IMG/VR virus record: IMGVR_UViG_3300009616_000304
Coordinates: 1-21,402 of that record
Strand: one strand, 5' to 3'
DNA length: 21,402 nt
Source of the DNA: a virus
Part shown: piece by piece, positions 3,703 to 18,294 of the stretch
Numbering within the stretch: position 1 is the stretch's first letter
How the letters are laid out: every line of letters begins with the position of its first letter
Program-made: the position numbers and the translations under genes
Notes under the pieces: model-generated
Told to the model about the DNA's origin: nothing
The model's database searches: none
Seen by the model: only the letters and a program-made list of their open reading frames with translations

Positions 3703-3705
3703 GCC

Positions 3706-4107: not shown

Positions 4108-4115
4108 GGCCGGTC

Positions 4116-4336: not shown

Positions 4337-4468
4337 ATGGACATCGGCGAGCCGGTCCGCACCGTGGAGATGCCGGAGCAGGAGCCTGCGGTGGAGCCGC
4401 AGGAGCCGGCGCCGGAGCGGGAGCCGGAGCGGGAGCCGGAGCGGGTGCCGGAGCGGGTGCCGGCGTGA
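4337..4468 (+). CDS. 43-aa Pro-Glu repeat peptide
   Basis: A tiny ORF starting 5 nt after the previous stop and overlapping the next start by GTGA. Apart from a short start (MDIGEPVRTVEMPEQ) it is entirely low complexity: alternating Glu-Pro with Arg, ending in tandem PERE and PERV units encoded by four 12-bp repeats. Proline-glutamate-rich chains are stiff and extended, as in the TonB linker. Here there is no attached domain, so it could be a spacer peptide, or an in-frame relic of a linker once fused to a neighbour. The tight overlaps on both sides support real translation. Confidence 0.55.
   Translation: MDIGEPVRTVEMPEQEPAVEPQEPAPEREPEREPERVPERVPA
4412..4459 (+). repeat. four tandem 12-bp repeats
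   Basis: The unit CCGGAGCGGGAG repeats four times in tandem (4412, 4424, 4436, 4448); the last two copies carry GTG in place of the final GAG. The repeats encode the PERE/PERV part of the 43-aa peptide, and copy number is likely to vary between relatives. Confidence 0.9.
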
Positions 4469-6066: not shown

Positions 6067-6606
6067 ATGAGCGACGCCCTGGTGACGCTGCCGCTGCCCG
6101 CCGACGCCCTGGCGGGGGCCTCCGCCGATCTGGTGGCCGCCCAGGTGTACCTCGAGGAGGCGATCCACGCCCCGTATGAGGACGAGTGCTTCGCCGCCCT
6201 CTGGCAGGTGAAGGAGTGGCTGGAGTGGGCCTGCGCCGACTACCAGGCGGCCGGCCTCGGCCCGGCGGCGGCGGTCTGCGGTGCGGTGCTCGCCCAGGTG
6301 CGCGGCCTCACCCAGGCGGGGACGGTGCCGGGCGGGATGAGCCTCGGGGACTTCCAGAGCCAGCAGCTCCTGCCGCTGCAGGGGGCTCTCGTGGAGATCC
6401 GCCTGGAGCCCATCGCGGAGTGGGCGCAGGGCCAGGCGGAGGCCTGGAAGGGCGACAACCTGATCTTCTGGGGGCTCTTGGGGACCGGGGTGGGCATCCT
6501 CGCCATCGCGGTCGGCATCGACGCCCTGGAGCGGCGCGGCAAGTACCCGAGGCCGCCCCACGCCCGGCGGGTGGCCGTGACTGCGCTCCGCTACCCCAGG
6601 AAGTGA
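6067..6606 (+). CDS. unrecognised helical protein with C-terminal membrane segment
   Basis: A 179-aa protein. Residues ~1-130 are Ala-rich and helical with several Trp and Cys (YEDECFAALWQVKEWLEWACADY); ~133-150 form one transmembrane helix (FWGLLGTGVGILAIAVGI), followed by a basic tail. It starts 6 nt after a promoter-like CATAAT and overlaps the next gene by GTGA. The topology suggests a large soluble domain tethered at the membrane by its C-terminal region. No family is recognised. Confidence 0.65.
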   Translation: MSDALVTLPLPADALAGASADLVAAQVYLEEAIHAPYEDECFAALWQVKEWLEWACADYQAAGLGPAAAVCGAVLAQVRGLTQAGTVPGGMSLGDFQSQQLLPLQGALVEIRLEPIAEWAQGQAEAWKGDNLIFWGLLGTGVGILAIAVGIDALERRGKYPRPPHARRVAVTALRYPRK

Positions 6607-6617
6607 CTGCGCTCCGC
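6577..6617 (+). repeat. 15-bp direct repeat at gene junction
   Basis: GTGACTGCGCTCCGC occurs at 6577-6591, inside the end of the 6067 gene, and at 6603-6617, where it is the start of the next gene. Both copies are read in their own gene's frame as VTALR. The 26-nt offset is not a multiple of three, so losing one repeat period would join the two ORFs in frame. Confidence 0.85.
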
Positions 6618-7145
6618 GCCCAGATCGCCCGCGACCTCAAGTCGGCCGAGGGGGCGCTGTGCACCCTCCTCCAGGTGTGGGCCATCGTGGCGGCCCAGCT
6701 GCCCAGCCTCGGGGTCTCAGCCAAGGTGGTGAGCGGGGCGGCGGCGGCGCTCGCGCTGGCGTCGCTGTGCGTCAAGGCCGGGCTCACCGCCGACTCGTAC
6801 GGGCTGGAGACAGCCCTGCTCTCGATCCAGGGCTCCTGGTCCGTGGTGGGGGCCAACCTCGGCCAGGTGGGGGCGCCGCTCAAGGTGGTGAACCTGGCCG
6901 GCACGGGCCTGGCCCTGGCCGTCTTCTGCCTGCAGCGGGCCGCCCAGACCCGCCGCCCCGCGCCGCCGCTCCCTCCCCCAGCGCCCCCTCCGGTGAGCTC
7001 CGTGAGGCTGGAGGGCCCCGTGTCCATCGAGACGGGGCGGGCTCCGCAGCCGCTCTCGGAGGAGCTCGCGGGGCTGCCCGGGGTGACCTCGGTGGAGAGC
7101 GGCGCCGAGGGCGGCATGGTGCACGTGGACATCGGGCTCGGCTGA
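6603..7145 (+). CDS. membrane protein with Pro-rich linker and small C-terminal domain
   Basis: A 180-aa protein starting at GTG 6603 with a GTGA overlap. The N-terminal ~110 residues form hydrophobic or amphipathic helices (~18-35, ~45-60, ~90-105). A Pro-rich linker (PPLPPPAPPP) follows, then a ~55-residue domain (SSVRLEGPVSIETG...LPGVTSVESGAEGGMVHVDIGLG) that looks like a small beta structure. No family is recognised. It ends just before a hairpin and a fresh promoter, so it closes this transcription unit. Confidence 0.6.
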   Translation: MTALRAQIARDLKSAEGALCTLLQVWAIVAAQLPSLGVSAKVVSGAAAALALASLCVKAGLTADSYGLETALLSIQGSWSVVGANLGQVGAPLKVVNLAGTGLALAVFCLQRAAQTRRPAPPLPPPAPPPVSSVRLEGPVSIETGRAPQPLSEELAGLPGVTSVESGAEGGMVHVDIGLG

Positions 7146-7160
7146 CGCGATCTCACCGCC

Positions 7161-7183
7161 ACCCGCCACCGGGCGGGTACGAT
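7161..7183 (+). promoter_or_regulatory. hairpin overlapping a promoter-like -10 box
   Basis: ACCCGCC (7161-7167) and GGCGGGT (7172-7178) form a 7-bp stem with a 4-nt loop, perhaps ending the upstream transcript. The last base of the stem is the first base of TACGAT (7178-7183), a good -10 that ends 8 nt before ATG 7192, so the mRNA would be leaderless or nearly so. Confidence 0.5.
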
Positions 7184-7191
7184 AGGGCGCG

Positions 7192-8208
7192 ATGGCCGGT
7201 CTGGATCCCGATGCGGCTGGCGAGGTCGCGACCTTCGTCACCCGGGGAGCGCTGACGCTGGTGAGCGAGGCCGCCCGCGGCGCCCTGGCGGGGCGGATGA
7301 CGGGGAGCTTCGTGACCGAGGAGGTGGACGGGAAGCGGTACGGCCCGCTGCCGCCGCTCAGCGAGAGCGTCCACCTGGGCGACACCATCGGGGCGACGGT
7401 GATCGCGGAGCAGGAGGCGGCCGACCTCGAGGGCCAGCGGATCACCCTGCCCCCCGGGGTCTATGACACCGTCGTCGGTCTCGACTACGAGCGGGGCATC
7501 GTCCGGATGTGCGTGGAGGGCGAGGCGCCCCAGTCGGTGCTCCTGGTGGGCGACCCCGGCACCGGCAAGTCCATCCTCATGCAGGCGACCCGCGAGGCCC
7601 TGCCCGAGGAGGGCAAGTACATCGACGGCAAGCAGATGACCCCGGCCGCGCTCGCCAAGGTGGTCGCCGACCCGCGCGTCCGGGTGCTCTTCATTGACGA
7701 GATCGAGAAGGCGGATCGGGATGCCCAGGAGTCGCTCCTGGAGCTGATGCTGGGCCGGGTGTCCACGGCCAAGGTGGGCAACATCCAGGAGATCGTCAAG
7801 GATCTGCGGGTGATCGCCGCCGCCAACGACCCGGAGCGGATGTCGGCGGCACTCCGCGACCGCTTCATCGAGATCGAACTCCCCCACTACAGCCTCCCCC
7901 AGCGGCGCGAGGTGATGAGCAAGGTGCTCCAGGCCCGCCACGGGGTGGCTGAGGAGGATGCGGAGCGGATCGCCAGCGAGGTCGCCCCCCACTCCACCTC
8001 TATCCGGGATGCGGAGCAGGTGGCCTGGGCGGAGAAGGAGAACCCGGCGCTCGCCCGCGAGATGACGGAGCGGATCCGCCGGCGTGCTGGCGGCGCCGAG
8101 GCGGCCGTGCCGCCGGGCACCGCACCACCGCGCACTGCACGCACTGCAACCCGCAAGGCTGCGCCCAAGCCGCCGAAGCCCCGGCCCCGGGCCGCCGCGC
8201 CAGCCTGA
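7192..8208 (+). CDS. AAA+ ATPase (MoxR/RuvB-like)
   Basis: A 338-aa protein. Residues ~1-110 are an unassigned N-terminal region. The AAA+ core has Walker A GDPGTGKS (120-127), Walker B VLFIDE (165-170), sensor 1 AAND (~210-213) and an arginine-finger segment ALRDRF (220-225), followed by a helical lid. The C-terminal ~50 residues are a Pro/Ala/Lys/Arg tail that could bind nucleic acid. Such ATPases remodel proteins or DNA as hexameric rings. It lacks features I would expect of a HerA/FtsK-type viral packaging ATPase. It is followed at 13 nt by a small HExxH protein, which may be its partner. The start is set by the promoter box 8 nt upstream. Confidence 0.85.
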   Translation: MAGLDPDAAGEVATFVTRGALTLVSEAARGALAGRMTGSFVTEEVDGKRYGPLPPLSESVHLGDTIGATVIAEQEAADLEGQRITLPPGVYDTVVGLDYERGIVRMCVEGEAPQSVLLVGDPGTGKSILMQATREALPEEGKYIDGKQMTPAALAKVVADPRVRVLFIDEIEKADRDAQESLLELMLGRVSTAKVGNIQEIVKDLRVIAAANDPERMSAALRDRFIEIELPHYSLPQRREVMSKVLQARHGVAEEDAERIASEVAPHSTSIRDAEQVAWAEKENPALAREMTERIRRRAGGAEAAVPPGTAPPRTARTATRKAAPKPPKPRPRAAAPA

Positions 8209-8221
8209 CCGGAGGGCTGGG

Positions 8222-8617
8222 ATGCCGCTCCTCCGACCCGGGGTGGAGGTTGACAACCGCACCCGGTACCCCACCGCCGAGGTGCGGGCGATCATCCAGC
8301 GCTGCATGGTGGGGCGGCGGGCCAAGCCTCCCCGGGTGATCGTGCTCCCTCAGCGCAACCCGGCTGGCGACCTGGCCTTCACCCCGTTCGACAGCGCCCA
8401 GCCGATCCGGATCTGGCTGGACCCGCCCTCCCGCTACCCCCAGGTGGGGGCCAGGACCTGGAAGGAGCAGCTCGCCAAGAGCGCGGGCCACGAGGACTGG
8501 CACTTCCAGCACCCGACCGAGGAGTGCCGGGGCGGCAGCTGCGAGCGGCGGGCGGAGCGCCACGCCACCCGCCAGTACCGCCGGCGGGCCGGGCGGCTGC
8601 GGAGGCGGGCACCGTGA
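8222..8617 (+). CDS. small HExxH metallopeptidase-like protein
   Basis: A 131-aa protein preceded by a good GGAGGG at 6 nt. ATG 8222 is selected by this site over the longer open frame. HEDWH (His90-Glu91-His94) is a zincin motif, and the helix SCERRAERHA ~18 residues later offers Glu112 as a third zinc ligand, as in small ImmA/IrrE-like or phage zincins. A CRGGSC pair lies between them. The C-terminus is strongly basic (RQYRRRAGRLRRRAP). Cleavage of a repressor or virion protein is conceivable. Alternatively the basic tail could mean DNA or RNA binding with a degenerate protease fold. Confidence 0.65.
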   Translation: MPLLRPGVEVDNRTRYPTAEVRAIIQRCMVGRRAKPPRVIVLPQRNPAGDLAFTPFDSAQPIRIWLDPPSRYPQVGARTWKEQLAKSAGHEDWHFQHPTEECRGGSCERRAERHATRQYRRRAGRLRRRAP

Positions 8618-8802
8618 ACGTGAAGCTGGTGGCCCTGGCCCCCCTGCTGCGCCCACACCGCGACCGCGACGAGGTGCTGCGCGAGATCAGCGACCGGCTG
8701 CGCCGCCTGGACATCCATGTGAGCCGGGCGGTTCGCGAGGTGGAGAGATCGCGGCTCCGGTGCCCACCGCCCGTGGACGATTCGCCCGACGCTGGGTGCT
8801 GA
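8614..8802 (+). CDS. small coiled-coil protein
   Basis: A 62-aa protein starting at GTG 8614 with a GTGA overlap and GGAGG at 8601-8605. The middle (RDRDEVLREISDRLRRLDIHVSRAVREVERSRLR) is a charged amphipathic helix likely to form a coiled coil; the tail ends with PPPVDDSPDAGC. It sits between the zincin-like protein and a second helical protein with a membrane anchor. A chaperone, scaffold or spanin-like role is possible but nothing decides it. Confidence 0.6.
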   Translation: MNVKLVALAPLLRPHRDRDEVLREISDRLRRLDIHVSRAVREVERSRLRCPPPVDDSPDAGC

Positions 8803-8803
8803 A

Positions 8804-9214
8804 GTGCTCCGCGAGGGCCTGCCGGTCGCGATCCCGCTGACGCCACGACCCCACCGCCGCCCCAAGCGCCCGCGCGAGTCCGACCTCGCCTACCGCATGG
8901 AGTTGCTGGAGGCGGACAGTCAGTGCCACTTTGAGCGCGCGCACGACCTGAACGGGGCCGTGGGCATGGTGCGGCTGGACCAGGAGACCCTCCGCCGTGA
9001 CCTCCTCGGCGACCCGACCATCGGCCTCAAGGGCATCCTGGGCGACATCCGCGACGAGGTGCATGGCCTGGTCACCACCGTCGGCGAGCTCCAGCAGGCA
9101 GGCCCCAGCCGGCGGCGGCGGCTCACCTGGCAGCTCTGGGTGCCGCTCCTCATCGCGGTGGTGGCGGGAGCGGTGGGGGGGCTGGTGGGGGCGTTCTCAG
9201 GGCTCCACCCTTAA
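8804..9214 (+). CDS. helical protein with C-terminal membrane anchor
   Basis: A 136-aa protein starting at GTG 8804, one base after the previous stop. The N-terminal ~30 residues are basic and Pro-rich. Residues ~30-100 are helical and coiled-coil-like (TIGLKGILGDIRDEVHGLVTTVGELQQ). RRRR precedes a transmembrane segment (~112-131), and the protein ends 5 residues later. A tail-anchored helix with an inside-positive flank fits a membrane-tethered rod. The start is uncertain because no ribosome site is obvious, so an internal ATG at ~8898 is also possible. Confidence 0.6.
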   Translation: MLREGLPVAIPLTPRPHRRPKRPRESDLAYRMELLEADSQCHFERAHDLNGAVGMVRLDQETLRRDLLGDPTIGLKGILGDIRDEVHGLVTTVGELQQAGPSRRRRLTWQLWVPLLIAVVAGAVGGLVGAFSGLHP

Positions 9215-9221
9215 CCGGACA

Positions 9222-9269
9222 CCGCACCGTCGATGCTCCCCGGGGCGGCCGGGGCGTGGTACGGTGCGG
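9222..9269 (+). promoter_or_regulatory. inverted repeat and promoter-like box before the 39-aa gene
   Basis: CCGCACCGT (9222-9230) and ACGGTGCGG (9261-9269) are perfect 9-bp arms with a 30-nt loop containing CCCCGGGG. The right arm overlaps TACGGT (9260-9265), a GGTAC-type -10, so the structure could both terminate the upstream transcript and control the next one. Confidence 0.4.
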
Positions 9270-9309
9270 GGGGCAGCGCTTGCGGGACGGGGCGTCGTCG
9301 GAGGTCGCC

Positions 9310-9429
9310 GTGTACACCCACTCCCACCCCCATAAGCACATGGGCAAGAAGGGGCACAAGAGCCACAAGAAGGGCCGGAGCCGGGCGCGTCAGCCGCGCA
9401 ACCGCCTCGGCCAGTTCAAGCGCAAGTAA
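9310..9429 (+). CDS. 39-aa His/Lys/Arg-rich peptide
   Basis: A short ORF with GTG at 9310 and GGAGG at 9300-9304 (5-nt spacing). The first third is His-rich (THSHPHKHMGKKGHKSHKK) and the rest Arg/Lys-rich, ending NRLGQFKRK. More than half of the residues are basic. It resembles the short basic peptides that coat or condense viral DNA and the 'NxxGqF' C-termini of phage nucleic-acid-binding proteins. It has its own promoter-like box and a perfect terminator hairpin at its stop, so it may be a highly expressed single gene. The function is inferred from composition only. Confidence 0.65.
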   Translation: MYTHSHPHKHMGKKGHKSHKKGRSRARQPRNRLGQFKRK

Positions 9430-9444
9430 CCGGCCTCCGGTTAC
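9426..9444. terminator. bidirectional hairpin between convergent genes
   Basis: GTAACCGG-CCT-CCGGTTAC is a perfect 8-bp stem with a 3-nt loop. The TAA stop of the plus gene (9427-9429) lies in the left arm and the TAA stop of the minus gene (9441-9443) in the right arm, so one structure ends both operons. There is no U-run on either side. Confidence 0.7.
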
Positions 9445-9647
9445 CGCTTGACCTCGGTGGAGGGGGCGGGGACCCGCTCCTCGCCCCCTGCCGCCTGCCT
9501 GAGTATCGCGGGGTGGCGCCGACCGGAGGGGGTCGGCGCCCAGTGGCACCAGCAGGGGCAGGGCGGCAGCCCGTGCCACGGCAAGTCGTGCTCGCGGGCA
9601 CCCTCAGAGGTGGCGCACCCGGCGGAGCAGAAACAGATGGGACTCAT
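9441..9647 (-). CDS. small Cys/His-rich protein
   Basis: A 68-aa protein, last of the long minus-strand operon, starting 12 nt after the previous stop. Its N-terminal half has CFCSAGC, then two His, then CPCWCH, a good metal-binding set; the C-terminal half is Arg/Pro/Glu-rich and probably flexible. The stop lies in the shared terminator hairpin. A strong 10-bp hairpin lies inside the coding region at 9515-9540. The function is unknown; the Cys spacing matches no named zinc finger I know. Confidence 0.55.
   Translation of the reverse strand: MSPICFCSAGCATSEGAREHDLPWHGLPPCPCWCHWAPTPSGRRHPAILRQAAGGEERVPAPSTEVKR
9515..9540. other. strong intragenic hairpin
   Basis: GGCGCCGACC (9515-9524) and GGTCGGCGCC (9531-9540) form a perfect 10-bp stem with a 6-nt loop inside the 68-aa gene. 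It may stop read-through from the plus-strand operon or stall transcription in the last minus gene. Confidence 0.5.
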
Positions 9648-9659
9648 CCGTGGCCGCCA

Positions 9660-10034
9660 TCAGTCGTCGTCAGGACCGCTCGTCGCGTCATTGAAGAGGT
9701 CGCGCGCAGCGGCCGCCGCGCTCTCTGGCCGCTCAGGGTGCCCAAGCCGCGCCAGGATGCGTGTTGCCCGTGATCCGAAGGCATCGAAGTGAGGCGGGAA
9801 CCAACCGTGAGCCTCCTGGATCCACGACGCCCTCATCCCCTCCCGCTCGCCCCAGTCGCGGAGCACGGGTAGCTCAGCCATGACGTGCAGGAACGGCCCG
9901 CGCCTGGCTTTCCCGCCGATCACGGTCCCGCTGTAGTCAAGGTTCTCGTGGATGGCGACGCCCCCGTCAGCCGCGAAGCGGCACGCCTCCATGATCTCTC
10001 TGAGTGGGAAGTAGCGCTCGCGGAGTTCACCCAT
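9660..10034 (-). CDS. unrecognised soluble protein, weakly DUF4031-like
   Basis: A 124-aa protein with no membrane segment. The stretch LHVMAELPVLRDWGEREGM...SWIQ...WFPPHFDAFGSRATRILARLG recalls the DUF4031 layout (H-x-x-AE-L ... G ... W/FQ ... HYD ... R..A...GA), a small family of unknown function common in phages. The similarity is a pattern match by eye and may be wrong. It overlaps the upstream gene by 8 nt and is part of the long minus-strand operon. Confidence 0.6.
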   Translation of the reverse strand: MGELRERYFPLREIMEACRFAADGGVAIHENLDYSGTVIGGKARRGPFLHVMAELPVLRDWGEREGMRASWIQEAHGWFPPHFDAFGSRATRILARLGHPERPESAAAAARDLFNDATSGPDDD

Positions 10035-10686
10035 TCGGCCGTTCCCGAGCCTCCCTACCGCCCTTGCCCATCGCAGCGATCAGCTCATCGGGGCGCGAGG
10101 TCACAGCGTCATGCACGAGGGCATGGGTTGGGCCGCAGGCCGTCGCGCTGTACCGTTCCCCGCACTGGGGACAGGTGACGCGGGGTTCCCACGCCTCAAG
10201 GAGCGACCGCCGACGGGCGGCGAGGCGGATCAGCTCATCCCGTTGGGCCACGAGGTCGTGCACCTGGCGCTGGAGCATGGTGATCTCGGCAACCGCTCCG
10301 GGGTTGGCAGGATTCGTCACCGCCCTTCCCGAGAATCTCCTGTTGCGTGCCGGGTTATCGGCCGAGTGCGAGTGGTGGGTGGGGGCACCCGCCGCTGCGT
10401 AGAGGGCGTGGAAGATGCCCTCCACGGGCTTCTGATCCGCCAGGCAGGCGGCGAGGCAGCCGGGGCAGCACAGTGCGTCAGGGTCGGTGCAACCACCGCC
10501 GAGTGACCACCCGGGCCCGCCCTTGGCGAACCGATCCTTGCCGCATAGCGTCGGCCCCGGCGTCCCGTGGTGGGTCGCCCCGACGAGGCAGACCTCGTGG
10601 AGCGGCCGGCCATCGACCAGACCGCCGAAGGCCCACTGGAGCGTCTCATAGGCCACGATTTCGTCGGCGCTCGGCGTCTCAGTCAT
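10027..10686 (-). CDS. fused ORF: Cys-rich N-terminal protein joined to a zinc-ribbon protein
   Basis: A 219-aa open frame that looks like two genes joined by a one-base insertion. Residues ~1-120 contain Cys/His sets (VCLVGATHHGT..TLCG; CCPGCLAAC). The second part has a helix and a ribbon (CPQCGERYSATAC). At the join (10331-10344) the junction motif reads CAGGAGATTC instead of CAGAGATTC. Removing one G at 10339/10340 makes the first gene end NRDSREGR-stop with the TGA overlapping GTG 10320 of a 97-aa second gene (10027-10320), exactly the overlap style used elsewhere. A sequencing error or a recent mutation could explain it. ATG 10686 is preferred over 10695 by the position of GAGGG. Confidence 0.6.
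   Translation of the reverse strand: MTETPSADEIVAYETLQWAFGGLVDGRPLHEVCLVGATHHGTPGPTLCGKDRFAKGGPGWSLGGGCTDPDALCCPGCLAACLADQKPVEGIFHALYAAAGAPTHHSHSADNPARNRRFSGRAVTNPANPGAVAEITMLQRQVHDLVAQRDELIRLAARRRSLLEAWEPRVTCPQCGERYSATACGPTHALVHDAVTSRPDELIAAMGKGGREARERPNG
10331..10344 (-). repeat. junction motif copy with one-base insertion
   Basis: Minus strand reads AACAGGAGATTCTC: one extra G relative to the consensus AGCAGAGATTCCC. A GATAAC lies upstream with the same 9-nt gap as at three other copies. Confidence 0.6.
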
Positions 10687-10969
10687 GTGTGACATCCCTC
10701 GGTTGGTCCGCTGAATCTCTGCTCAGGTGAGGCTCACGCTCAGCTTGCCTTCTCAGTGCGGCCACTACAGCCGGGGATGATCCCAGCGGCACATCCACGG
10801 GGAGCCCGCCCATCAACTTCGCCACCGTTTTCACCGTCCGTACAAAGAGGGGCAAATCAACGGGCTCCCCTACTGGAGGATTGAAGGCAGCGAGGAAGGT
10901 GGCTTGGGGGTCGCCCTCTATGCGATCAGCTGCGCGCCGCAAGAGGTCGGGCAGTCTGAGGTTAGGCAT
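10679..10969 (-). CDS. unrecognised small protein ending in the SRDS tail
   Basis: A 96-aa soluble protein starting at the ATG of a junction motif copy (10967-10982). Predicted helices include LRLPDLLRRAADRIE and VRTVKTVAKLMGGL; there is no Cys or membrane segment. The C-terminus is encoded by another motif copy (LSRDSADQPRDVTHD), extended by a few codons before the stop, which lies 8 nt inside the next gene. No family is recognised. Confidence 0.65.
   Translation of the reverse strand: MPNLRLPDLLRRAADRIEGDPQATFLAAFNPPVGEPVDLPLFVRTVKTVAKLMGGLPVDVPLGSSPAVVAALRRQAEREPHLSRDSADQPRDVTHD
10711..10723 (-). repeat. junction motif copy
   Basis: AGCAGAGATTCAG on the minus strand, encoding SRDS near the end of the 10679 gene. 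The core matches but the CCATG end is lost. Confidence 0.75.
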
Positions 10970-11153
10970 GGGGATCTCTGCTCACGATGTAGAGGCGATC
11001 CACATATCCCTCGGGTGGGGGCGGTGTCAGGGGCGCCCAATGCAGCCCGAGCCGCGACACCGTCCGCCCCTGGCAGGTGCAGACGTAGGAGGCATTGAGG
11101 CCGTGGCCGCGCCAGTTGGCGTCCTTGTCCGCGCAGGCGCACATCAGGGTCAT
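10962..11153 (-). CDS. small Cys-pair protein ending in SRDPHA
   Basis: A 63-aa protein starting 3 nt after the methyltransferase stop. CAC near the N-terminus and CTC 19 residues later, with an intervening GHG, could bind one zinc. The C-terminus VSRDPHA is encoded by a junction motif copy and overlaps the next start. It is one of a set of tiny proteins in this stretch built the same way. Confidence 0.6.
   Translation of the reverse strand: MTLMCACADKDANWRGHGLNASYVCTCQGRTVSRLGLHWAPLTPPPPEGYVDRLYIVSRDPHA
10967..10982 (-). repeat. junction motif copy (15 of 16 bases)
   Basis: AGCAGAGATCCCCATG on the minus strand; its ATG starts the 10679-10969 gene while SRDPHA ends the 10962 gene. Confidence 0.9.
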
Positions 11154-11156
11154 GCG

Positions 11157-12086
11157 TCAGTGCTCATGGGAATCTCTGCTACCCGGTGGGTTATCAGCGG
11201 CGGCGATCATCTGCCGCCCGACCCATTCCGCGACCTGGGGGACGACGGCGTTCCCGAGGCAGCGCAGTCGGTCCAACCGAGAGGGAACCCCATGAGCCAC
11301 TCGACCCACGTCGGGTTCAACGCGCCAGTATTCCGCCCAATCTCCTGGGACACGGCGTCCTCTAGCTTGCGGATGCCCCCGCCTGGCGTCGTTCGAGCCA
11401 TCTGTCCGCCACCCGTCGGCGTCTTCGGGGTTGGCCACAGGCCTCGCCTCGCCATCATCGTTTCCTGGAGCGACCCGTGCCGCCCGCTCGCGGTCATACG
11501 CACCTGGCTGGCGTCGCTCGCCGTCGGCGTCGGCCAGAGGCCACGCTCCGCCTTCATCGCCAGATGGGCCTCGGGCGTCTTCCCGTCGTCTTGCCCCACG
11601 GGTGTAGGCCACAATGAAGACCCGGTAACGGAGATGCGGGGCACCGAAGGCGGCCGCGGGGATACAGTCCCATTCCGCATCGTACCCGAGCGCGGCCAGG
11701 TCCCCAAGAACCTCGGCCATTCCAGGTCCAGCAAGGAGCCCTGGGACGTTCTCCAGGAGCGCGAGGCGGGGTCGTAGAACGCCAAGGAGCCGTGCGAACT
11801 CGGGCCAGAGCCATCGGCTGTCGGCGGCTCCTCGTCGCTGTCCAGCCAGGCTGACGGGCTGGCAGGGGAATCCTCCAGCGACGAGGGTGGTTCGGGGCAG
11901 CTCATGGCCGGTCAGCTCCTTGATGTCGCCAAAGCGGGGAACGTCGGGCCAGTGCTTCTCCAGCACCCGGCGGCAGTAGGGGTCGATCTCCACCTGGGCG
12001 CGGCACGTCCAGCCGGCGCGGTCCAGCCCGAGGTCGATCCCGCCGATCCCGGAGAAGAAAGAGACATAGGTGAGGTCATCCTGCAT
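11157..12086 (-). CDS. DNA (cytosine-5) methyltransferase
   Basis: A 309-aa enzyme that transfers methyl from S-adenosylmethionine to cytosine C5. Visible motifs are I (VSFFSGIGGIDLGL, ~8-21), IV (GGFPCQP with catalytic Cys75), VI (ENV, 112-114), VIII (HLRYRVFIVA), a short variable target-recognition stretch, and the C-terminal LGNAVVPQ. ATG 12086 is used because motif I begins directly after it; an open frame upstream only covers the previous gene. The last residues (GSRDSHEH) come from a junction motif. No restriction enzyme is visible beside it, so it is probably an orphan phage methylase for host-restriction evasion. A broken relative lies at 20496. Confidence 0.92.
   Translation of the reverse strand: MQDDLTYVSFFSGIGGIDLGLDRAGWTCRAQVEIDPYCRRVLEKHWPDVPRFGDIKELTGHELPRTTLVAGGFPCQPVSLAGQRRGAADSRWLWPEFARLLGVLRPRLALLENVPGLLAGPGMAEVLGDLAALGYDAEWDCIPAAAFGAPHLRYRVFIVAYTRGARRREDARGPSGDEGGAWPLADADGERRQPGAYDRERAARVAPGNDDGEARPVANPEDADGWRTDGSNDARRGHPQARGRRVPGDWAEYWRVEPDVGRVAHGVPSRLDRLRCLGNAVVPQVAEWVGRQMIAAADNPPGSRDSHEH
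11165..11180 (-). repeat. junction motif copy (perfect)
   Basis: AGCAGAGATTCCCATG on the minus strand, encoding SRDSH at the end of the methyltransferase; TGATAAC lies 9 nt upstream. Confidence 0.95.
11207..11905 (-). other. long alternate-frame ORF overlapping the methyltransferase
   Basis: A 232-aa open frame on the same strand, lying entirely inside the methyltransferase gene in another frame. It contains LWPTPVGQ, GLWPTPTASDAS, GLWPTPKTP and NPTWVEWLMGFPLGWTD. I recall WPTP and NPxWVEWLMGFPxGWT phrases from phage hypothetical proteins near C5 methylases. It could be a genuine overprinted gene, or a by-product of GC-rich codons with the methyltransferase under selection. The methyltransferase frame is certainly real, and this one is uncertain. 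Confidence 0.3.
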
Positions 12087-12237
12087 GGGTCTGGGAATCT
12101 CTGTGGAGTTGGCCGCTGCCGAATAGCTGGTCACACCCCCAGCAGAGTTGGGAGGTGGGGACGGACGGGCGGTTCCACCGGGTCAGCAGGCAGCGGCAGA
12201 CGGCGCAGCGGGGGTCCTTGTCGATGGTCTTACGCAT
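12076..12237 (-). CDS. 53-aa zinc-ribbon-like protein (MRKTIDK...)
   Basis: A small ORF starting at the ATG of a junction motif (12235-12250). Two knuckles, CAVCRC and CWGC, are ~17 residues apart, a typical single zinc-ribbon layout. It ends LHRDSQTHAG, encoded by another junction motif copy, and overlaps the methyltransferase start by 11 nt. It shares the first three residues (MRK) and the layout with its upstream neighbour, so the two may be distant paralogues or cassettes with the same boundary sequence. The function is unknown; such ribbons often bind nucleic acid or partner proteins. Confidence 0.7.
   Translation of the reverse strand: MRKTIDKDPRCAVCRCLLTRWNRPSVPTSQLCWGCDQLFGSGQLHRDSQTHAG
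12093..12105 (-). repeat. junction motif copy
   Basis: CACAGAGATTCCC on the minus strand, 7 nt before the methyltransferase ATG and in frame as HRDSQ in the upstream 53-aa gene. Confidence 0.85.
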
Positions 12238-12391
12238 GGGAATCTCTGCTCTTGGGTGGCAGCGGTCGCTTGTCCCACGGGGACCGCAGGTTGTAGCCCT
12301 TCGGTGGGAATAGGCGCAGGAGCCGCTCTAGCCGGTCGGACGGTGACTCGGGTGGCGGGGTCCACCCGCACATCGGGCACGGCTTACGCAT
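12230..12391 (-). CDS. 53-aa zinc-knuckle protein (MRKPCPMCGW...)
   Basis: A small ORF starting at the ATG of a junction motif (12389-12404). CPMCGW at residues 5-10 is a single CxxC knuckle; the rest is basic and Pro-rich (SPSDRLERLLRLFPPKGYNLRSPWDKRPLPP), so zinc binding would need dimerisation. It ends KSRDSHA, the SRDSH again coming from a junction motif. Overlap with the next start is 8 nt. No family is recognised. Confidence 0.65.
   Translation of the reverse strand: MRKPCPMCGWTPPPESPSDRLERLLRLFPPKGYNLRSPWDKRPLPPKSRDSHA
12235..12250 (-). repeat. junction motif copy (perfect)
   Basis: AGCAGAGATTCCCATG followed by CGTAAG, so the identity with the 12389 copy extends into the first codons of the downstream gene. 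Confidence 0.95.
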
Positions 12392-12620
12392 GGGAATCTC
12401 TGCTGAGCGGCTCGTTATCAGGGCGGGTGTTCAGCCGAGCCCTGAGCCGCCGCTCCACCTCATCGAAACAGGCACGACGCTGGGCGCGGGTAAGCGTCCA
12501 AACCCCGAACCCCCCGCCGACGGCCAGGCAAATCTCCTTCTCATCGAAACCGGCCTCGATGATGTAGTCAAGCGTCAGGGTCGGTGCGTCCCAGTGCATC
12601 TCCCCTTTGACGCGCGTCAC
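12384..12620 (-). CDS. unrecognised small protein ending in SRDSHA
   Basis: A 78-aa soluble protein. GTG 12620 is chosen because it overlaps the upstream TGA as GTGA. The ATG inside the junction motif upstream opens only a ~20-codon frame. The sequence has a helix-turn stretch (LTLDYIIEAGFDEKEICLAVGGGFGVWTLTRAQRRACFDEVERRLRAR split by a Gly-rich loop) and two Cys. It ends PLSRDSHA from the next motif copy. No family is recognised; a small DNA-binding or adaptor role is possible. Confidence 0.65.
   Translation of the reverse strand: MTRVKGEMHWDAPTLTLDYIIEAGFDEKEICLAVGGGFGVWTLTRAQRRACFDEVERRLRARLNTRPDNEPLSRDSHA
12389..12404 (-). repeat. junction motif copy (perfect)
   Basis: AGCAGAGATTCCCATG followed by CGTAAG; TGATAAC lies 9 nt upstream. 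Its ATG starts the 12230-12391 gene. Confidence 0.95.
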
Positions 12621-13084
12621 GTTCGATGCTCATGGGAATCTCTGCTATTAGCACGAACCGGCTCCGGCTCGTCCTCACGCTCCAACGGGTCGCCGCAGTT
12701 GTCGCACTCTGGAAACTCCATGTCATCCTGGGCGACGCAGGCCCACCCGCAACTCTCGCAGACGTACCTATGCGTAGTTTCAGACATCGCTAGCTCCCGT
12801 CGAATCTCTGCTATCAGCCCAGGACCTCGCCGACCCGCCAGCGGGCCGTCGTCATCCCACTCCTCGGTCCGCCATCCATCCCTCTCCAGGCGATCCAGGA
12901 CCAGGCTGGCGCCGCGTAGGAACCGCCGCGCCTTCTGGATCACGATGCGAGGGTTGCTGCCTACCACCAGCCGGGTCTCCTCGCGGTGACCATCGGCCGC
13001 ACTGATGACATCCAGATAGAACTCGACTTCTCCGGTGTCCACCCACCGGATGCCAGTCGGGGCAAGACGCGGCGCGTCAGCCAT
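12617..13084 (-). CDS. two-domain protein with C-terminal zinc ribbon, apparent gene fusion
   Basis: A 155-aa open frame. Residues ~1-95 form an unrecognised alpha/beta domain (GEVEFYLDVISAADGHREETRLVVG...); residues ~100-155 contain CESCGW...CDNCG, a rubredoxin-like ribbon, and end NSRDSHEHRT. The join falls on a junction motif (12801-12812) read in a different frame (IAEIRREL) from the usual SRDS. The ribbon has its own ATG at 12787 preceded by CGGGAG, so it may also be made alone as a 56-aa protein. In the SRDS frame the motif runs to a TGA overlapping that ATG, so this looks like a lost gene boundary. Confidence 0.65.
   Translation of the reverse strand: MADAPRLAPTGIRWVDTGEVEFYLDVISAADGHREETRLVVGSNPRIVIQKARRFLRGASLVLDRLERDGWRTEEWDDDGPLAGRRGPGLIAEIRRELAMSETTHRYVCESCGWACVAQDDMEFPECDNCGDPLEREDEPEPVRANSRDSHEHRT
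12631..12646 (-). repeat. junction motif copy (perfect)
   Basis: AGCAGAGATTCCCATG on the minus strand, encoding SRDSH at the end of the 12617 gene. Here the ATG does not open the main downstream frame. Confidence 0.95.
12801..12812 (-). repeat. junction motif copy in shifted frame
   Basis: AGCAGAGATTCG on the minus strand, inside the 12617-13084 open frame and 13 nt before the internal ATG at 12787. Confidence 0.8.
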
Positions 13085-13349
13085 GGTCTAAGTCTCTGTT
13101 TACCGGAGCAAGCCGCCAGATCACGTCCTCGGGCTTCGTGTCGGGACCGATCCACTCAGGGTATCCCTCGCGCCACACCCCGTCGATCCGCAGCAGCAGG
13201 GGGAAGTGATCCCCGCGACCGGCGAATAGGGCTGCGTTCTCCCGCTCCACCTCCCTCAGGAGTTCTGACTGGCAGAGGTACTCTGGATCGACGGTCGCGA
13301 GCATCGTCTTGATGTAGGCCATGCGCTCCGGGGTCAGGGCGTCAGCCAT
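13077..13349 (-). CDS. unrecognised small protein (MADALTPERMA...)
   Basis: A 90-aa soluble protein with a good GGAGGAG before ATG 13349. The N-terminal half is helical (PERMAYIKTMLATV ... LLREVERENAALFAG); the C-terminal half is aromatic and polar (LLRIDGVWREGYPEWIGPDTKPEDVIWRL). It ends VNRDLDHG from a diverged junction motif. Its first four residues (MADA) match the next gene downstream, so the shared boundary sequence extends into both starts. No family is recognised. Confidence 0.65.
   Translation of the reverse strand: MADALTPERMAYIKTMLATVDPEYLCQSELLREVERENAALFAGRGDHFPLLLRIDGVWREGYPEWIGPDTKPEDVIWRLAPVNRDLDHG
13090..13101 (-). repeat. junction motif copy (diverged)
   Basis: AAACAGAGACTT on the minus strand, in frame as NRDL; the next ATG follows after GACC. 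Confidence 0.65.
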
Positions 13350-13674
13350 GGCTCTCCTCCGAGTCTCTGCTTCCAGCGGTGTTATCAGCGCCAAAGAAGG
13401 CGAGCACCTCGGCGGACTCCGGGGGTACCGCTGCCTGAACCACCCGACGACCAGCGACAAACGCATTGAAGTCGTCTGCCGCGTGCCACCAGCACTGGAA
13501 ACCCCACACAACCGATCCATCCTCTAGCACGATCTTGGGGTTTGGGTGCTTGACGAGGCGTAGATAATCTCCGATCTCTCCAGGCGGGTAATCGTCTCCG
13601 ACATACTCACCAAAGCCGATCAGGCGCACCTCATCATCGTCAGCGCTCAAAATGGCAACCACGCGCTCGCTCAT
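13342..13674 (-). CDS. unrecognised acidic small protein
   Basis: A 110-aa protein overlapping the upstream stop by ATGA. It opens with a strand-rich segment (ERVVAILSADDDEVRLIGFGEYVGDDYPP), followed by PKIVLEDGSVVWGFQCWWHAADDFNAFV and a helical tail. The ADNTAGSRDSEESHG end is coded by a junction motif into which an ordinary GGAGGAG ribosome site has been set for the next gene. It looks like a small beta-rich domain; no family is recognised. Confidence 0.65.
   Translation of the reverse strand: MSERVVAILSADDDEVRLIGFGEYVGDDYPPGEIGDYLRLVKHPNPKIVLEDGSVVWGFQCWWHAADDFNAFVAGRRVVQAAVPPESAEVLAFFGADNTAGSRDSEESHG
13360..13371 (-). repeat. junction motif copy with added Shine-Dalgarno
   Basis: AGCAGAGACTCG then GAGGAGAGCC before the ATG; TGATAAC lies 9 nt upstream, as at the perfect copies. 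Confidence 0.75.
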
Positions 13675-14237
13675 GTCTCTCGCACTCCGAAGCTATCGGG
13701 CTCGGCGGCCCACTCCAGGGCGCACGGCGCGCAGAGCCGCCAGGGATTGTCCTCGCCGCCCTCGCCGTCCAGTTTCCCGTGACACGACGGGCAGCGGCCC
13801 ATGCGGGCCTCCTTCCACGCCGGGCCGATCTCTCCGGGGCCGAGCCCCAGGCGAACGTAGAGCGCCCGGTACTCCTCGGACGGCGGGGTGAGGACGAACG
13901 GCGGGGTGCCGATCTCCTCGGCGCTCATGCCGCCGCCCAGCGCGGAGAGCCGGTCTACCTCGCCCTGGAGCCGCGTGACCTCCTCGGTGAGCGTCTCCGC
14001 GATGGTGCGCCATTCCTCGGCGTCTCTGTTACCAGGCCGATCCTGGCAGTCGATGCCGCAGAGGGGGCAGGTGCCCACGTCGCGAAGGGCGCGGTGGTGC
14101 TCACACTCAGCGTCGTGACGGCCCGCAGCGGCAGCGGCCTGATGGGCAGGGCGGCAGCGGGTTCGCCAGGCGATCAGTTGCCCCTCGGTCACCCCGAGAA
14201 TCGCGGCGTCCAGGGAGAGGAGATCAGCGTCGTTCAT
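13671..14237 (-). CDS. protein with two Cys-pair (zinc-ribbon) regions
   Basis: A 188-aa protein overlapping the upstream gene by ATGA. The N-terminal part is helical (LLSLDAAILGVTEGQLIAWRTRC), then CPLCGIDC. A central coiled-coil helix (EEWRTIAETLTEEVTRLQGEVDRLSAL) follows, and a C-terminal ribbon CPSCHGKL...CAPC. Between the first knuckle and the coiled coil lies GNRDAEEW, coded by a junction-motif-like sequence, so this may be an old in-frame fusion of two cassette proteins. An adaptor or nucleic-acid-binding role is plausible but not shown. Confidence 0.65.
   Translation of the reverse strand: MNDADLLSLDAAILGVTEGQLIAWRTRCRPAHQAAAAAGRHDAECEHHRALRDVGTCPLCGIDCQDRPGNRDAEEWRTIAETLTEEVTRLQGEVDRLSALGGGMSAEEIGTPPFVLTPPSEEYRALYVRLGLGPGEIGPAWKEARMGRCPSCHGKLDGEGGEDNPWRLCAPCALEWAAEPDSFGVRET
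14021..14032 (-). repeat. junction-motif-like sequence inside a gene
   Basis: GTAACAGAGACG on the minus strand, in frame as GNRD. It is the most distant and least certain copy. Confidence 0.4.
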
Positions 14238-14524
14238 GCCGGAACCTCGGCGCTGATGGCGGGGGCGACCTCGAAGACGTGGACGATGATGAGCCCGCCG
14301 ATGAGATGGCCCATCCCGATGCTCCTGACAATCCGCAGCGAGGCCGGGATCTCCTGTCCGGTATTGATGCAGAGGTAGTGGTGCTCCGTCTCGGGGAGGG
14401 CATCCCCGTGGAGCGCCCAGATGCAGACGGTGCCGCCCCGCTCCCGGCAGTACAGCGGCGGATGGGTGAGGCGCACGGTGGTGACCCCGTCCAGCATGAG
14501 CGGGTACTTGAACACGGCGAGCAT
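14234..14524 (-). CDS. unrecognised small protein with possible metal site
   Basis: A 96-aa protein. ATG 14524 has GGGAG about 8 nt upstream; the longer open frame is a shadow of the previous gene. It has a short N-terminal strand (AVFKYPL), CRERGGTVCIWALHG, EHHYLCINTGQEIP, and a hydrophobic C-terminal strand pair (IGMGHLIGGLIIVHVFEV). It looks like a small beta-barrel-like phage protein. The opening 'vfkypl...v.lp...' resembles a family of short phage hypothetical proteins I have seen but cannot name. Confidence 0.6.
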   Translation of the reverse strand: MLAVFKYPLMLDGVTTVRLTHPPLYCRERGGTVCIWALHGDALPETEHHYLCINTGQEIPASLRIVRSIGMGHLIGGLIIVHVFEVAPAISAEVPA

Positions 14525-14537
14525 TGAGGATCTCCCT

Positions 14538-14891
14538 TTACGGTGATGGGGTTGCGGTAGTGAGCGGATAGAGGGAGGGCGGCGGGATCTCCGCCGTTGG
14601 CAGCGGGGTGGTGAGGTAGACGCCGGCGCAGGGCGACGATCCGGCGGGCGGCGGCCAGCTGGAGCACGCGGGGGTGGCATACGGCGTCGGCGTCGGGGTG
14701 CCGAACGTGAAGCTGGGCACCGGGGCGTAGGTCGGCCCCGTCCAGGTGCCGGAGGGCGTGAGGCTGGGCGTGGCCAGCTGCACCACGAGCGGAGAGCCCG
14801 GGCCGAGATCCCAGATCACCAGCACCACGACGCCAGCCACGACCAGGATGGCCAAGATCATGAGCAGGCCACGGAGGACGGCGGTCATCAT
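14538..14891 (-). CDS. membrane-anchored Thr/Pro-rich protein
   Basis: A 117-aa protein starting ATGATG with an ATGA overlap. Residues ~8-27 are a transmembrane helix or uncleaved signal (LLMILAILVVAGVVVLVIW). The rest is an extracytoplasmic Ser/Thr/Pro-rich chain (TPTPTPYATP) with two Cys (ACSSW...SPCAG) that could pair. The gene at 17271 has the same plan. Such proteins may coat the cell surface or act in superinfection exclusion, which is inference. Confidence 0.65.
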   Translation of the reverse strand: MMTAVLRGLLMILAILVVAGVVVLVIWDLGPGSPLVVQLATPSLTPSGTWTGPTYAPVPSFTFGTPTPTPYATPACSSWPPPAGSSPCAGVYLTTPLPTAEIPPPSLYPLTTATPSP

Positions 14892-15151
14892 CCACGCTCT
14901 CCGTCGGGGTGGCAGCGGTAGCAGCGGGCGGTGCCGGGCACGGCGGACAGCCGGAACGGCAGAGCCCGCTCAGCCGCCTCGCGGAGGACCTTCCCCGTGA
15001 CGGCTAGCGACACCCCGGCCTGCTCATCGAGGTCGAAGGTGCCGTCGGTGTGGAACCGCACCAGGCAGCGGCCGCAGTCGGAGCACATCTCCTCCTCGAT
15101 CACGGGAGCGTCGGGAGGCGGCGGTGCGGGACGCGACCAGGGGAGCCTCAT
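14888..15151 (-). CDS. small four-cysteine zinc protein
   Basis: An 87-aa protein overlapping the upstream stop by ATGA. The knuckles are CSDCGRC near residue 23 and CYRCH near the C-terminus; between them lies a segment like LVRFHTDGTFDLDEQAGVSLAVTGKVLREAAERALPFRL that probably forms strands and a helix. An N-terminal Pro-rich stretch precedes. No named family is recognised. Confidence 0.65.
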   Translation of the reverse strand: MRLPWSRPAPPPPDAPVIEEEMCSDCGRCLVRFHTDGTFDLDEQAGVSLAVTGKVLREAAERALPFRLSAVPGTARCYRCHPDGERG

Positions 15152-17638: not shown

Positions 17639-18060
17639 CACCCCGTCCTCCGCTCGCACCACTCGACCAGGGCCAGGAGGTCATCGTCGGACATGGTGAA
17701 GTAGGCGTAGTAGCGGAAGGGAGAATCGGGGGTTGAGATCCCGGTGGCGGCGGCGAGGCGGTAGGCGAGGTCGCGACGGGCGTCGGCCTCTGCCTGCTCC
17801 CTATCGTGCTTGAGCTGCCTCTCGCTGTCGCGCAGCCGACGCTGCTCATGGACACCGCAGAGCGTCCCCACCTTGCGGCGGTTGAGACAGGGGTGGCCGT
17901 AGAGCATCGACGTGCAGCGCTCCTCGGGCGCGAGGTAGGGCTTGGCCACGGGCTGATCGTAGAAGTGGGGATGAGCGAGCCGCCACTCGGCAAGCGCGAG
18001 CACGGCCGTGGCCGCCTCCACCGCCACGACCTTGTCGCCGTCGACGTACATGAACTTCAT
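17638..18060 (-). CDS. protein with Cys/His metal site and helical tail
   Basis: A 140-aa protein preceded by GGAGG about 10 nt before ATG 18060. The central CTSMLYGHPCLNRRKVGTLCGVHEQRRL has the C..C..C-x2-H spacing of a small phage zinc site (GxPCxxxxxxGxxCxxH). An acidic/basic coiled coil follows (DSERQLKHDREQAEADARRDLAYRL) and a C-terminal TMSDDDLLALVEWCERR helix. The fold resembles small phage-encoded zinc proteins of unknown role. Confidence 0.65.
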   Translation of the reverse strand: MKFMYVDGDKVVAVEAATAVLALAEWRLAHPHFYDQPVAKPYLAPEERCTSMLYGHPCLNRRKVGTLCGVHEQRRLRDSERQLKHDREQAEADARRDLAYRLAAATGISTPDSPFRYYAYFTMSDDDLLALVEWCERRTG

Positions 18061-18099
18061 CGGATCAGCCTCCAGTGGGGGGTGGGTGGGTGCGGGGCT

Positions 18100-18294
18100 T
18101 CACAGCGGTGCGGTCTCCCAGCGGTGGACGGTGGATGCGACCGTCTCCAGGCCGCCGAGGCAGCCGTCGCAGATGGGCCGCCACGGGTGCTCCTGGCCGG
18201 GCGGCGCCACCCAGCGGAAGCGGAGGGAGGCTTGCCGCCCGCACCAGGCGCAGGGCCGAGCCCTATCCCTCCGCTCCATCGTCCCCACACTCAT
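18100..18294 (-). CDS. 64-aa zinc-ribbon protein
   Basis: A small protein overlapping the upstream stop by ATGA. CAWCG (~15-19) and CDGC (~42-45), separated by strand-forming sequence (ASLRFRWVAPPGQEHPWRPI), make a standard one-zinc ribbon. The C-terminal helix (LGGLETVASTVHRWE) follows. It is one of at least eight such small Cys-pair proteins in the minus-strand operon. A 39-nt gap holding a ribosome site separates it from the next gene. Confidence 0.7.
   Translation of the reverse strand: MSVGTMERRDRARPCAWCGRQASLRFRWVAPPGQEHPWRPICDGCLGGLETVASTVHRWETAPL

What the first reader, a model, noticed from the sequence alone, without database searches (positions are those of the whole stretch)
10331..14032. 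Start-associated junction repeat AGCAGAGATTCCCATG that both ends one gene and introduces the next
On the minus strand, four perfect copies (11165, 12235, 12389, 12631), two near-perfect (10967, 12093) and up to six diverged copies lie at gene boundaries. Read in frame they give each upstream protein an (S/N/H)RD tail (KSRDSHA, LSRDSHA, GSRDSHEH, VSRDPHA, LHRDSQ, VNRDLDHG). The ATG often starts the next gene. The codons are invariant, including AGA, which should be rare at this GC content, so selection is at DNA or RNA level. At four copies GATAAC lies exactly 9 nt upstream. It resembles the start-associated sequences of cluster K mycobacteriophages and the conserved boundary sequences of lambdoid phages, but the sequence is different. 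It might be a ribosome-recruiting element, a promoter or processing site, or a recombination boundary for swapping small-gene cassettes.
Basis: partly seen in the sequence, partly recalled or inferred. Interest (0 to 1): 0.82.

Follow-up and report, generated by a model that had tools for sequence, protein, structure and literature searches.

The report
Frame-keeping joints between phage gene cassettes
In an uncultivated bacterial virus, a short repeated sequence sits at the joint between small genes, and sister viruses have gained, lost or swapped exactly the genes between two of its copies, so it looks like a reusable connector that lets small genes be exchanged without breaking their neighbours.

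Summary
The repeat is real: 4 exact 16-mers and one with a single mismatch (0.11 matches expected). All 11 gene boundaries of a 3-kb run of small genes in a tailed-phage contig carry a copy, 10 with the core CAGAGA[T/C] and one with an extra base. The genes between copies are unrelated, so this is no tandem duplication. Relatives act as natural experiments at copies 13369 and 11178. G004 lacks all seven cassettes and joins inside the motif; G006 and G022 carry one different cassette; G001 has foreign DNA up to the CAGAGA of copy 13369. A diverged phage (G021, other hits 70-87% identical) carries one cassette 100% identical over 157 bp, starting and ending at motif edges. In the motif's frame the next start overlaps the stop by exactly 8 nt at 7 of 11 copies, against 0.6% of other positions. 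Best reading: a translational-coupling joint that also serves as the short crossover homology for cassette gain, loss and transfer. Coupling and the recombination route are inferred. It is an array-form variant of known phage boundary repeats (Corndog, Island3), not a cluster K SAS. A promoter is unsupported. A small serine recombinase is encoded, but nothing ties it to the motif.

The parts
13342..13386 (-). Joint 1: GATAAC-N9-AGCAGAGAC..., upstream gene stop overlaps next ATG by 8 nt; crossover point in G001, G004, G006, G022
13077..13100 (-). Joint 2: AACAGAGACTTAGACC + 8-nt stop/start overlap
12780..12812 (-). Joint 3: AGCAGAGATTCGACGG..., 8-nt overlap in the motif frame; the current upstream ORF passes through in another frame; start edge of the shared cassette
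12617..12646 (-). Joint 4: exact 16-mer, GTGA 4-nt stop/start overlap
12384..12419 (-). Joint 5: GATAAC-N9-exact 16-mer, 8-nt overlap; 31-bp match (93.5%) to G021:47933-47963
12230..12250 (-). Joint 6: exact 16-mer, 8-nt overlap
12076..12105 (-). Joint 7: CACAGAGATTCCCAGACCCATG; the methyltransferase ATG (12086) overlaps the upstream stop by 11 nt; an ATG at -4 opens another ORF
11157..11195 (-). Joint 8: GATAAC-N9-exact 16-mer after the methyltransferase; next gene starts 3 nt beyond the stop; crossover point in G004, G006, G022
10962..10982 (-). Joint 9: one-mismatch 16-mer, 8-nt overlap
10679..10723 (-). Joint 10: AGCAGAGATTCAGCGGACCAA..., 8-nt overlap (right arm resembles the G006 cassette's TTTAGCAGACCAA)
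10317..10359 (-). Joint 11: GATAAC-N9-AACAGGAGATTC, one extra base relative to the other copies; ORF 10027-10686 now reads through it
12650..12806 (-). Single cassette (small protein with CxxC pairs) 100% identical over 157 bp to G021:36388-36544
11157..12086 (-). Cassette gene H: C-5 cytosine DNA methyltransferase (PF00145, E=1.4e-41)
13342..13674 (-). Flank gene A, found in G002, G003, G004, G006, G022; its C-terminal tail changes with the joint
13077..13349 (-). Cassette gene B, 90 aa, no family match
12788..13084 (-). Cassette gene C (ORF now continues into D, 12617-13084)
12617..12787 (-). Cassette gene D, 56 aa, CxxC pairs; weak zinc-ribbon matches below Pfam cut-offs for 12617-13084
12384..12620 (-). 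Cassette gene E, 78 aa
12230..12391 (-). Cassette gene F, 53 aa
12076..12237 (-). Cassette gene G, 53 aa
10962..11153 (-). Flank gene I, 63 aa
10679..10969 (-). Gene J, 96 aa
10027..10686 (-). Genes K+L, read as one ORF through joint 11

Best explanation
The repeat is a reusable joint between small accessory genes of a tailed phage. Each copy carries the last codons of the gene before it, (S/N/H)-R-D-..., and, just downstream, a stop codon in that frame that overlaps or adjoins the start of the next gene, most often as ATGNNTGA or ATGNNTAA. A ribosome finishing one gene can then restart on the next, although SD signals are mostly weak (inferred). Because the copies share core and phase, recombination between two of them, in one genome or between genomes, removes, inserts or swaps whole genes and still yields an in-frame stop next to a start. 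SHOWN: the repeat; one gene per interval; the alternative states with breakpoints in the motif; one cassette identical in a diverged phage; the overlap geometry. INFERRED: that exchange or annealing at the short homology is the route; that coupling of translation is what keeps the element; that copies multiply because each incoming cassette brings one (n cassettes, n+1 copies: 0/1, 1/2, 7/8).
For: Between copies 13369 and 11178: seven cassettes in the window, G002 and G003; none in G004, with a join inside AGCAGAGA; one unrelated cassette in G006 and G022. G001 switches to foreign DNA at the CAGAGA of copy 13369, and the foreign upstream ORF ends in the same tail in frame. Flanks in G004, G006 and G022 have 0-1 SNP per 500 bp in the nine bins from 6501 to 11000 and none at 13501-14500, so the swaps are recent. 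In G021 one cassette is 157/157 identical, from GATT inside copy 12810 to GTGCT just before copy 12644, while the other 11 blastn hits are 70-87% identical. Cassettes resemble each other essentially only over 16-39 bp at their ends. In the motif frame a start at exactly -8 from the end of the stop, opening 40 codons or more, occurs at 7 of 11 copies against 26 of 4239 positions of the region outside the copies; among actual adjacent gene pairs elsewhere in G001, 1 of 41 has it (Fisher p=1.8e-5 for 7 of 11, 1.4e-4 for 6 of 11 if 12810 is not counted). Array starts: SD of -6 kcal or stronger in 3 of 10 against 18 of 29 elsewhere; mean folding energy -6.6 against -14.7 kcal/mol; GC 58 against 70%.
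Against: Swaps are seen at one pair of copies (13369/11178); G004 and G001 are one contig each; no swap was seen at the other copies. The core shared at the G004 joint is only 8 bp, short for RecA-type recombination (general knowledge). Another deletion in G004 (17830-18138) shows almost no homology, so this phage also loses DNA without the motif. In G021 the shared cassette lacks part of the motif at both ends, and the rest of that island has no CAGAGA on that strand. At G006:61121 the cassette gene stops before the motif, and at G021:47944 the upstream gene probably stops at the TGA of TGATAAC, so in-frame coupling is not universal. At 10344 and 12810 the open ORF runs through. The overlap test was framed after seeing the copies, and gene starts are my predictions. 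Direction (gain or loss) is unknown. No RecT match was found in 3 of 3 genomes.
Confidence: 0.66

Rival explanations
1. Pure translation-start element: the motif recruits ribosomes, as proposed for the start-associated sequences of cluster K phages. The coincidence with cassette ends arises only because each gene brings its own start signal, and recombination uses any homology available.
For: Position just upstream of or over starts, low structure and low GC; the full element is kept in front of a start at another locus of the diverged phage G021.
Against: Pairing with the anti-SD is only -1.9 to -3.2 kcal at 7 of 10 starts; the other three starts have a good SD downstream of the core, belonging to the cassette; distance from core to start varies from 11 to 35 nt.
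Confidence: 0.18
2. Site-specific cassette system: a phage recombinase, such as the small serine recombinase encoded by G001, G006 and G021, recognises the motif and inserts or excises cassettes, in the manner of an integron.
For: A PF00239 protein in 3 of 3 genomes searched; n cassettes with n+1 copies; crossovers of four joints (G004, G006 left and right, G001) inside or at the edge of one short core.
Against: The element has no clear dyad symmetry (best self-match 12 of 24), which sites of that enzyme class usually have (recalled); the G021 crossovers lie at the edges rather than in the core; no tyrosine integrase was found in 3 of 3 genomes.
Confidence: 0.08
3. Conserved C-terminal peptide: the tails (S/N/H)RD.. 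are selected as protein tags.
For: At 9 of 11 window copies the upstream ORF reads the motif in the same frame and ends soon after.
Against: AGA is the codon at 10 of 11 copies though it is 0.9% of Arg codons elsewhere (partly because copies were found by CAGAGA); the DNA persists where the tail is not made (12810, 10344, G006:61121, probably G021:47944).
Confidence: 0.04
4. Chance or assembly artefact: mis-joins of metagenome contigs.
For: All data are metagenome contigs; the G004 and G001 states each rest on one contig.
Against: The seven-cassette state is in G002 and G003 as well as the window, and most of it in G001; the one-cassette state is in G006 and G022; the homology at the joints is far shorter than usual assembly k-mers (general knowledge); the G006 cassette is absent from the window.
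Confidence: 0.04

Closest known systems
Cluster O mycobacteriophages: Corndog gene 14 and YungJamal gene 60 flanked by short repeats (PMC4351075; section 12 and other passages read)
   Same: A small gene between two copies of a short repeat at gene junctions, one copy in relatives without the gene; recombination between repeats, or with a partner carrying one, proposed.
   Different: There, single genes and other repeats; here 11 copies in a row with seven consecutive cassettes, a constant reading phase and a cassette shared with a diverged phage.
Island3 genes 67/68 of cluster I mycobacteriophages (PMC3029335; passages read)
   Same: The inserted gene repeats the C-terminal coding end of its upstream neighbour (18 residues, about 50 bp), giving the homology for gain or loss.
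   Different: Described as a single event; no multi-copy element is mentioned in the passages seen.
Short conserved boundary sequences of lambdoid phages (recalled; named only as a concept in the PMC3029335 passages)
   Same: Short sequences at module borders as sites of homologous exchange.
   Different: The original papers were not read; here the boundary sequence is one element repeated within one run of genes, so it also serves deletions and serial arrays.
Start-associated sequences (SAS/ESAS) of cluster K mycobacteriophages and cluster EF Microbacterium phages (PMC3203893, PMC7302621; passages read)
   Same: A 13-bp repeated, strand-oriented sequence at starts of non-structural genes, some with an upstream companion element.
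   Different: SAS of cluster K contains AGGAG, lies typically 3-7 bp before starts, mostly after gaps over 50 bp; here no AGGAG in 10 of 11 cores, stop/start overlaps, and no cluster K SAS match in the window.

Membership tests
Phage boundary/junction repeats mediating gene gain or loss (Corndog, Island3 type) | Short repeat at both ends of a gene block, single copy in relatives lacking the block | tested here: met
   G004 has one copy where the window has eight; join inside the motif
Phage boundary/junction repeats mediating gene gain or loss (Corndog, Island3 type) | Repeat lies at gene ends and joins leave genes open | tested here: met
   Upstream ORF of the G001, G004 and G006-left joints still ends in frame shortly after the core with a start at -8, +3 and -4; two of 11 window joints are now read through (12810, 10344)
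Phage boundary/junction repeats mediating gene gain or loss (Corndog, Island3 type) | Recombination between copies shown in the laboratory | not testable with these tools
   Comparative data only
Start-associated sequence (cluster K SAS) | Consensus GGGATAGGAGCCC within 2 deviations | tested here: not met
   0 matches in the window, 1.44 expected by chance
Start-associated sequence (cluster K SAS) | Contains SD core AGGAG in ribosome-binding position | tested here: not met
   Core is CAGAGA[T/C]; only the 10344 copy contains AGGAG
Start-associated sequence (cluster K SAS) | Mostly before genes with upstream gaps over 50 bp | tested here: not met
   In the motif frame starts lie at -8 (7), -4 (12644), -11 (12103) and +3 (11178) from the end of the stop; 10344 is read through
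Start-associated sequence (cluster K SAS) | 17-bp inverted repeats (ESAS) upstream of a subset | tested here: not met
   7 inverted-repeat pairs (arms of 10 nt or more, 60 nt apart at most) in 10300-13420, each different, none recurring at joints; the companion here is GATAAC at 4 copies
Integron gene-cassette array | Tyrosine recombinase (IntI) in the genome | tested here: not met
   No PF00589 match in 3 of 3 genomes; 14 of 14 control genomes match
Integron gene-cassette array | attC sites with imperfect dyad symmetry at cassette ends | tested here: not met
   No clear dyad in one composite element; no recurrent inverted repeats at the joints
Integron gene-cassette array | Serial cassettes with one site each, exchanged singly | tested here: met
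   n cassettes, n+1 copies; one cassette shared with G021
Small serine recombinase (resolvase/invertase) target | Dyad-symmetric crossover site | tested here: not met
   Best self-match 12 of 24 positions; that the class needs a dyad is recalled

The most novel reading that the evidence does not exclude
A phage counterpart of an integron without attC sites: a dedicated, frame-keeping connector sequence acted on by a phage-encoded recombinase, letting these phages capture, stack and trade single small genes as expression-ready cassettes within one run of coupled genes.
Probability: 0.08. Interest if true: 0.85.

Novelty: new variant of a known kind. Interest (0 to 1): 0.55.

Why it matters
How phages keep swapping small genes without breaking their operons is an old question. 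[quoted passage not shown] Here the joint is visible, repeated, and caught in several alternative states among nearly identical phages, with a plausible reason (keeping stop/start overlap and frame) for a short sequence to become a preferred border. That makes the boundary-sequence idea testable with an element of some 16-35 bp.

Tried and rejected
Tandem duplication of one gene: rejected. All-against-all BLASTP of 14 ORFs (12 of the window, 2 of relatives) gave one match beside self, between two tails; BLASTN of the 12 window ORFs gave matches at their ends plus one internal 16-bp match. Promoter or terminator: none found, and no Rfam family. Anti-phage defence models: only the methyltransferase of 10 array proteins matched. 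The motif in unrelated records: 18 viral stretches hold the exact 16-mer. Six belong to this phage group (L005, L007, L008, L016, L018, L020). The other 12 have one copy each and no BLASTN match to the window; I take them as chance. The 81 stretches of genome contigs have one copy each, in many phyla by their titles; I opened none of them. Composite-pattern hits outside the group (L217, L218, L219, L221, L222, L224) are lower-GC contigs (32-45%) without BLASTN similarity to G006, G001 or G021; L224 has a tblastx match to G006 elsewhere. Methyltransferase relatives: of the 80 kept loci, AGCAGAGATTC occurs six times in each of the three near-identical contigs, once in L035 (not followed up) and in none of the other 76. 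Integrase, RecT and HNH: none in 3 of 3 genomes. Host: not identified. One protein resembles a mycobacteriophage terminase at 34% over 42% of its length (that those phages are cluster C is recalled) and the primase is D5-like; an actinobacterial host is only a guess. Literature: the listings (58 rows out of larger sets) show no title on this motif; a search for the string AGCAGAGATTCCC found one paper, on leukaemia, by its title unrelated and not opened. The library is open-access PMC only.

Full report
WHAT IS THERE. The window (71% GC) is part of an uncultivated tailed phage. Three near-identical contigs (G001, 59.5 kb; G002, 55.4 kb; G003, 21.7 kb), three close relatives (G004, G006, G022) and one diverged relative (G021) were found in IMG/VR. 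G006 has 127-bp identical ends, consistent with a complete genome of about 70.5 kb. One G001 protein matches mycobacteriophage terminases at 34% and another is a D5-like primase. With diverged copies there are 11 in a row on the minus strand from 13369 to 10344, plus a doubtful one inside a gene at 14028. In 15 aligned copies (11 of the window with the doubtful 14028 and without 10344, and 4 of relatives) CAGAGA is invariant, but they were collected by that hexamer. Not set by the search are A at -2 in 14 of 15, T at +7 in 13 of 15, A at +11 in 12 of 15 and G at +13 in 13 of 15. Each of the 11 successive gene boundaries of the run has a copy, 10 with the exact core.

ANATOMY. Each interval between successive copies holds one gene. 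Read in the phase AGC-AGA-GAT, the ten copies from 13369 to 10721 are followed by an in-phase stop 19-43 nt on. The next gene's start overlaps that stop by 8 nt at 7 copies (13369, 13098, 12810, 12402, 12248, 10980, 10721), by 4 nt at 12644 and by 11 nt at 12103 (an ATG at -4 there opens another ORF); it lies 3 nt beyond the stop at 11178. The eleventh copy, 10344, has one base more than the others and its ORF runs through. At 12810 the geometry is intact but the present upstream ORF passes in another phase, so there the overlap is with a stop that this ORF does not use. A start at exactly -8 opening at least 40 codons is found for 7 of 11 copies and for 26 of 4239 other minus-strand positions of 9660-14900; the distance limits of that test were chosen after seeing the copies. 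Among 42 adjacent gene pairs examined in G001, 2 have the -8 overlap and 15 the common 4-nt overlap; one of the two is joint 1 itself, so 1 of 41 (Fisher p=1.8e-5 against 7 of 11, 1.4e-4 against 6 of 11). Ten array starts lie in a weaker-structured, lower-GC context with weaker SD pairing than 29 other genes; starts are my own predictions, so this comparison is rough.

NATURAL EXPERIMENTS. Between copies 13369 and 11178 several states exist. Window, G002 and G003: seven cassettes, eight copies (G002 aligned whole; 12.4 kb of G003 aligned). G004: no cassette, one copy; gene A is followed by a single motif leading into gene I, with the crossover inside AGCAGAGA. G006 and G022: one cassette (66-aa ORF) not in the window, two copies. 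G001: the array as in the window, but the sequence upstream of the CAGAGA of copy 13369 is unrelated, and its last ORF (93 aa) ends in the same tail through the same joint. Whether G001's first 2214 bases belong to the same phage or to a mis-assembly cannot be decided here. In G004, G006 and G022 the flanks of the swapped block are almost free of SNPs (at most 1 in each of the nine 500-bp bins from 6501 to 11000, none at 13501-14500; the bins that hold the joints show 0-5 mismatches at the very edge), while regions further out differ by up to 18% in a bin. Gene content at this locus therefore changed very recently.

SHARED WITH A DIVERGED PHAGE. Twelve BLASTN hits join the window to G021; eleven are 70-87% identical. 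Its island between the matches to window 15164 and 9433 is syntenic but has different genes. It nevertheless contains 157 bp 100% identical to window 12650-12806, from GATT inside copy 12810 to GTGCT just before copy 12644. To its left G021 has GCTGATAACACC, as in joint 1, then GATTCG: the middle of the motif is missing, but an upstream ORF still ends at a stop overlapping the cassette's ATG. On the right the cassette ORF continues into other sequence. G021 also has one complete element at 47963-47917 in a different place, 93.5% identical over 31 bp to joint 5, where the upstream gene most likely ends at the TGA of TGATAAC. So the DNA element can persist where the tail peptide is not made.

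NOT A DUPLICATION, NOT A PEPTIDE TAG. The cassette proteins match each other only in two tails, and the DNA matches lie at gene ends over 16-39 bp, with one internal 16-bp exception. AGA is 6 of 685 Arg codons in 29 backbone genes and the codon at 10 of 11 copies.

MECHANISM. I propose a joint with two roles. As RNA it ends one gene and restarts the next by stop/start overlap. As DNA it gives a short shared sequence, in constant phase, at which recombination produces new neighbours that still fit. The first role would explain conservation of phase and context; the second explains the breakpoints. Neither has been tested at the bench. The recombination route is open: no tyrosine integrase, RecT or HNH match in G001, G006 and G021; a small serine recombinase is present in all three, but the element shows no clear dyad symmetry. 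Unrecognised recombinases are possible: of 72 ORFs scanned (61 of G001, 11 of the window) only the first 25 of 32 matched families were shown for each of two libraries.

COMPARISON. Cluster O and cluster I mycobacteriophages offer the same logic in single cases (PMC4351075, PMC3029335), and the boundary-sequence idea goes back to lambdoid phages (recalled; mentioned in PMC3029335). Cluster K and EF start-associated sequences (PMC3203893, PMC7302621) resemble it in position, but the cluster K definition fails in four tested features. What seems new is the array form, the constant reading phase with 8-nt overlaps, and several alternative states plus one shared cassette for one element. I file it as a new variant of a known kind.

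LIMITS. Seven related records only, all from IMG/VR; the G004 and G001 states rest on single contigs; host unknown; the viral collection was scanned to its cap (8 scans); swaps were seen at one pair of copies.

Noticed in passing
G001:58365-58763(+), G006:1597-1995(-), G021:24874-25272(+): A small serine recombinase (PF00239, E about 1e-45 to 1e-47) in all three genomes searched.
   Followed up: partly
window 20684-21226; G006:25964-26506: A 543-bp segment 99.6% identical lies elsewhere in G006, some 25 kb from the neighbours it has in the window/G002; the junction at 20683 is also a breakpoint for G004.
   Followed up: partly
window 3657-3703 and 4062-4108: Two stretches share a 47-nt repeat (72%) and G004 lacks the segment between them: a second, different repeat with loss of DNA.
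   Followed up: partly
window 17830-18138: Deletion in G004 with almost no homology at its ends, so loss also happens without repeats.
   Followed up: partly
window 20496-20645: 153-bp stretch 74.5% identical to the start of the cassette methyltransferase (11934-12086): a second, partial methyltransferase-like sequence.
   Followed up: no
window 14028: AACAGAGAC read as NRD inside ORF 13671-14237, possibly an old joint now inside a gene.
   Followed up: no
window 7902-7979; G001:25234-25311: 78 bp 88% identical between the AAA-ATPase gene and another gene of the same genome.
   Followed up: no
L035: One AGCAGAGATTC in a locus with a 49%-identical methyltransferase; not examined.
   Followed up: no
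ORFs scanned as alignment A1 (61 of G001, 11 of the window): Single matches to DUF5131 (E=1.8e-105), an RNA ligase family, a nucleotide-sugar epimerase, glycosyltransferases and a vitamin uptake transporter family.
   Followed up: no
window 4399-4463: 12-bp units repeated in tandem, four overlapping 29-nt copies.
   Followed up: no
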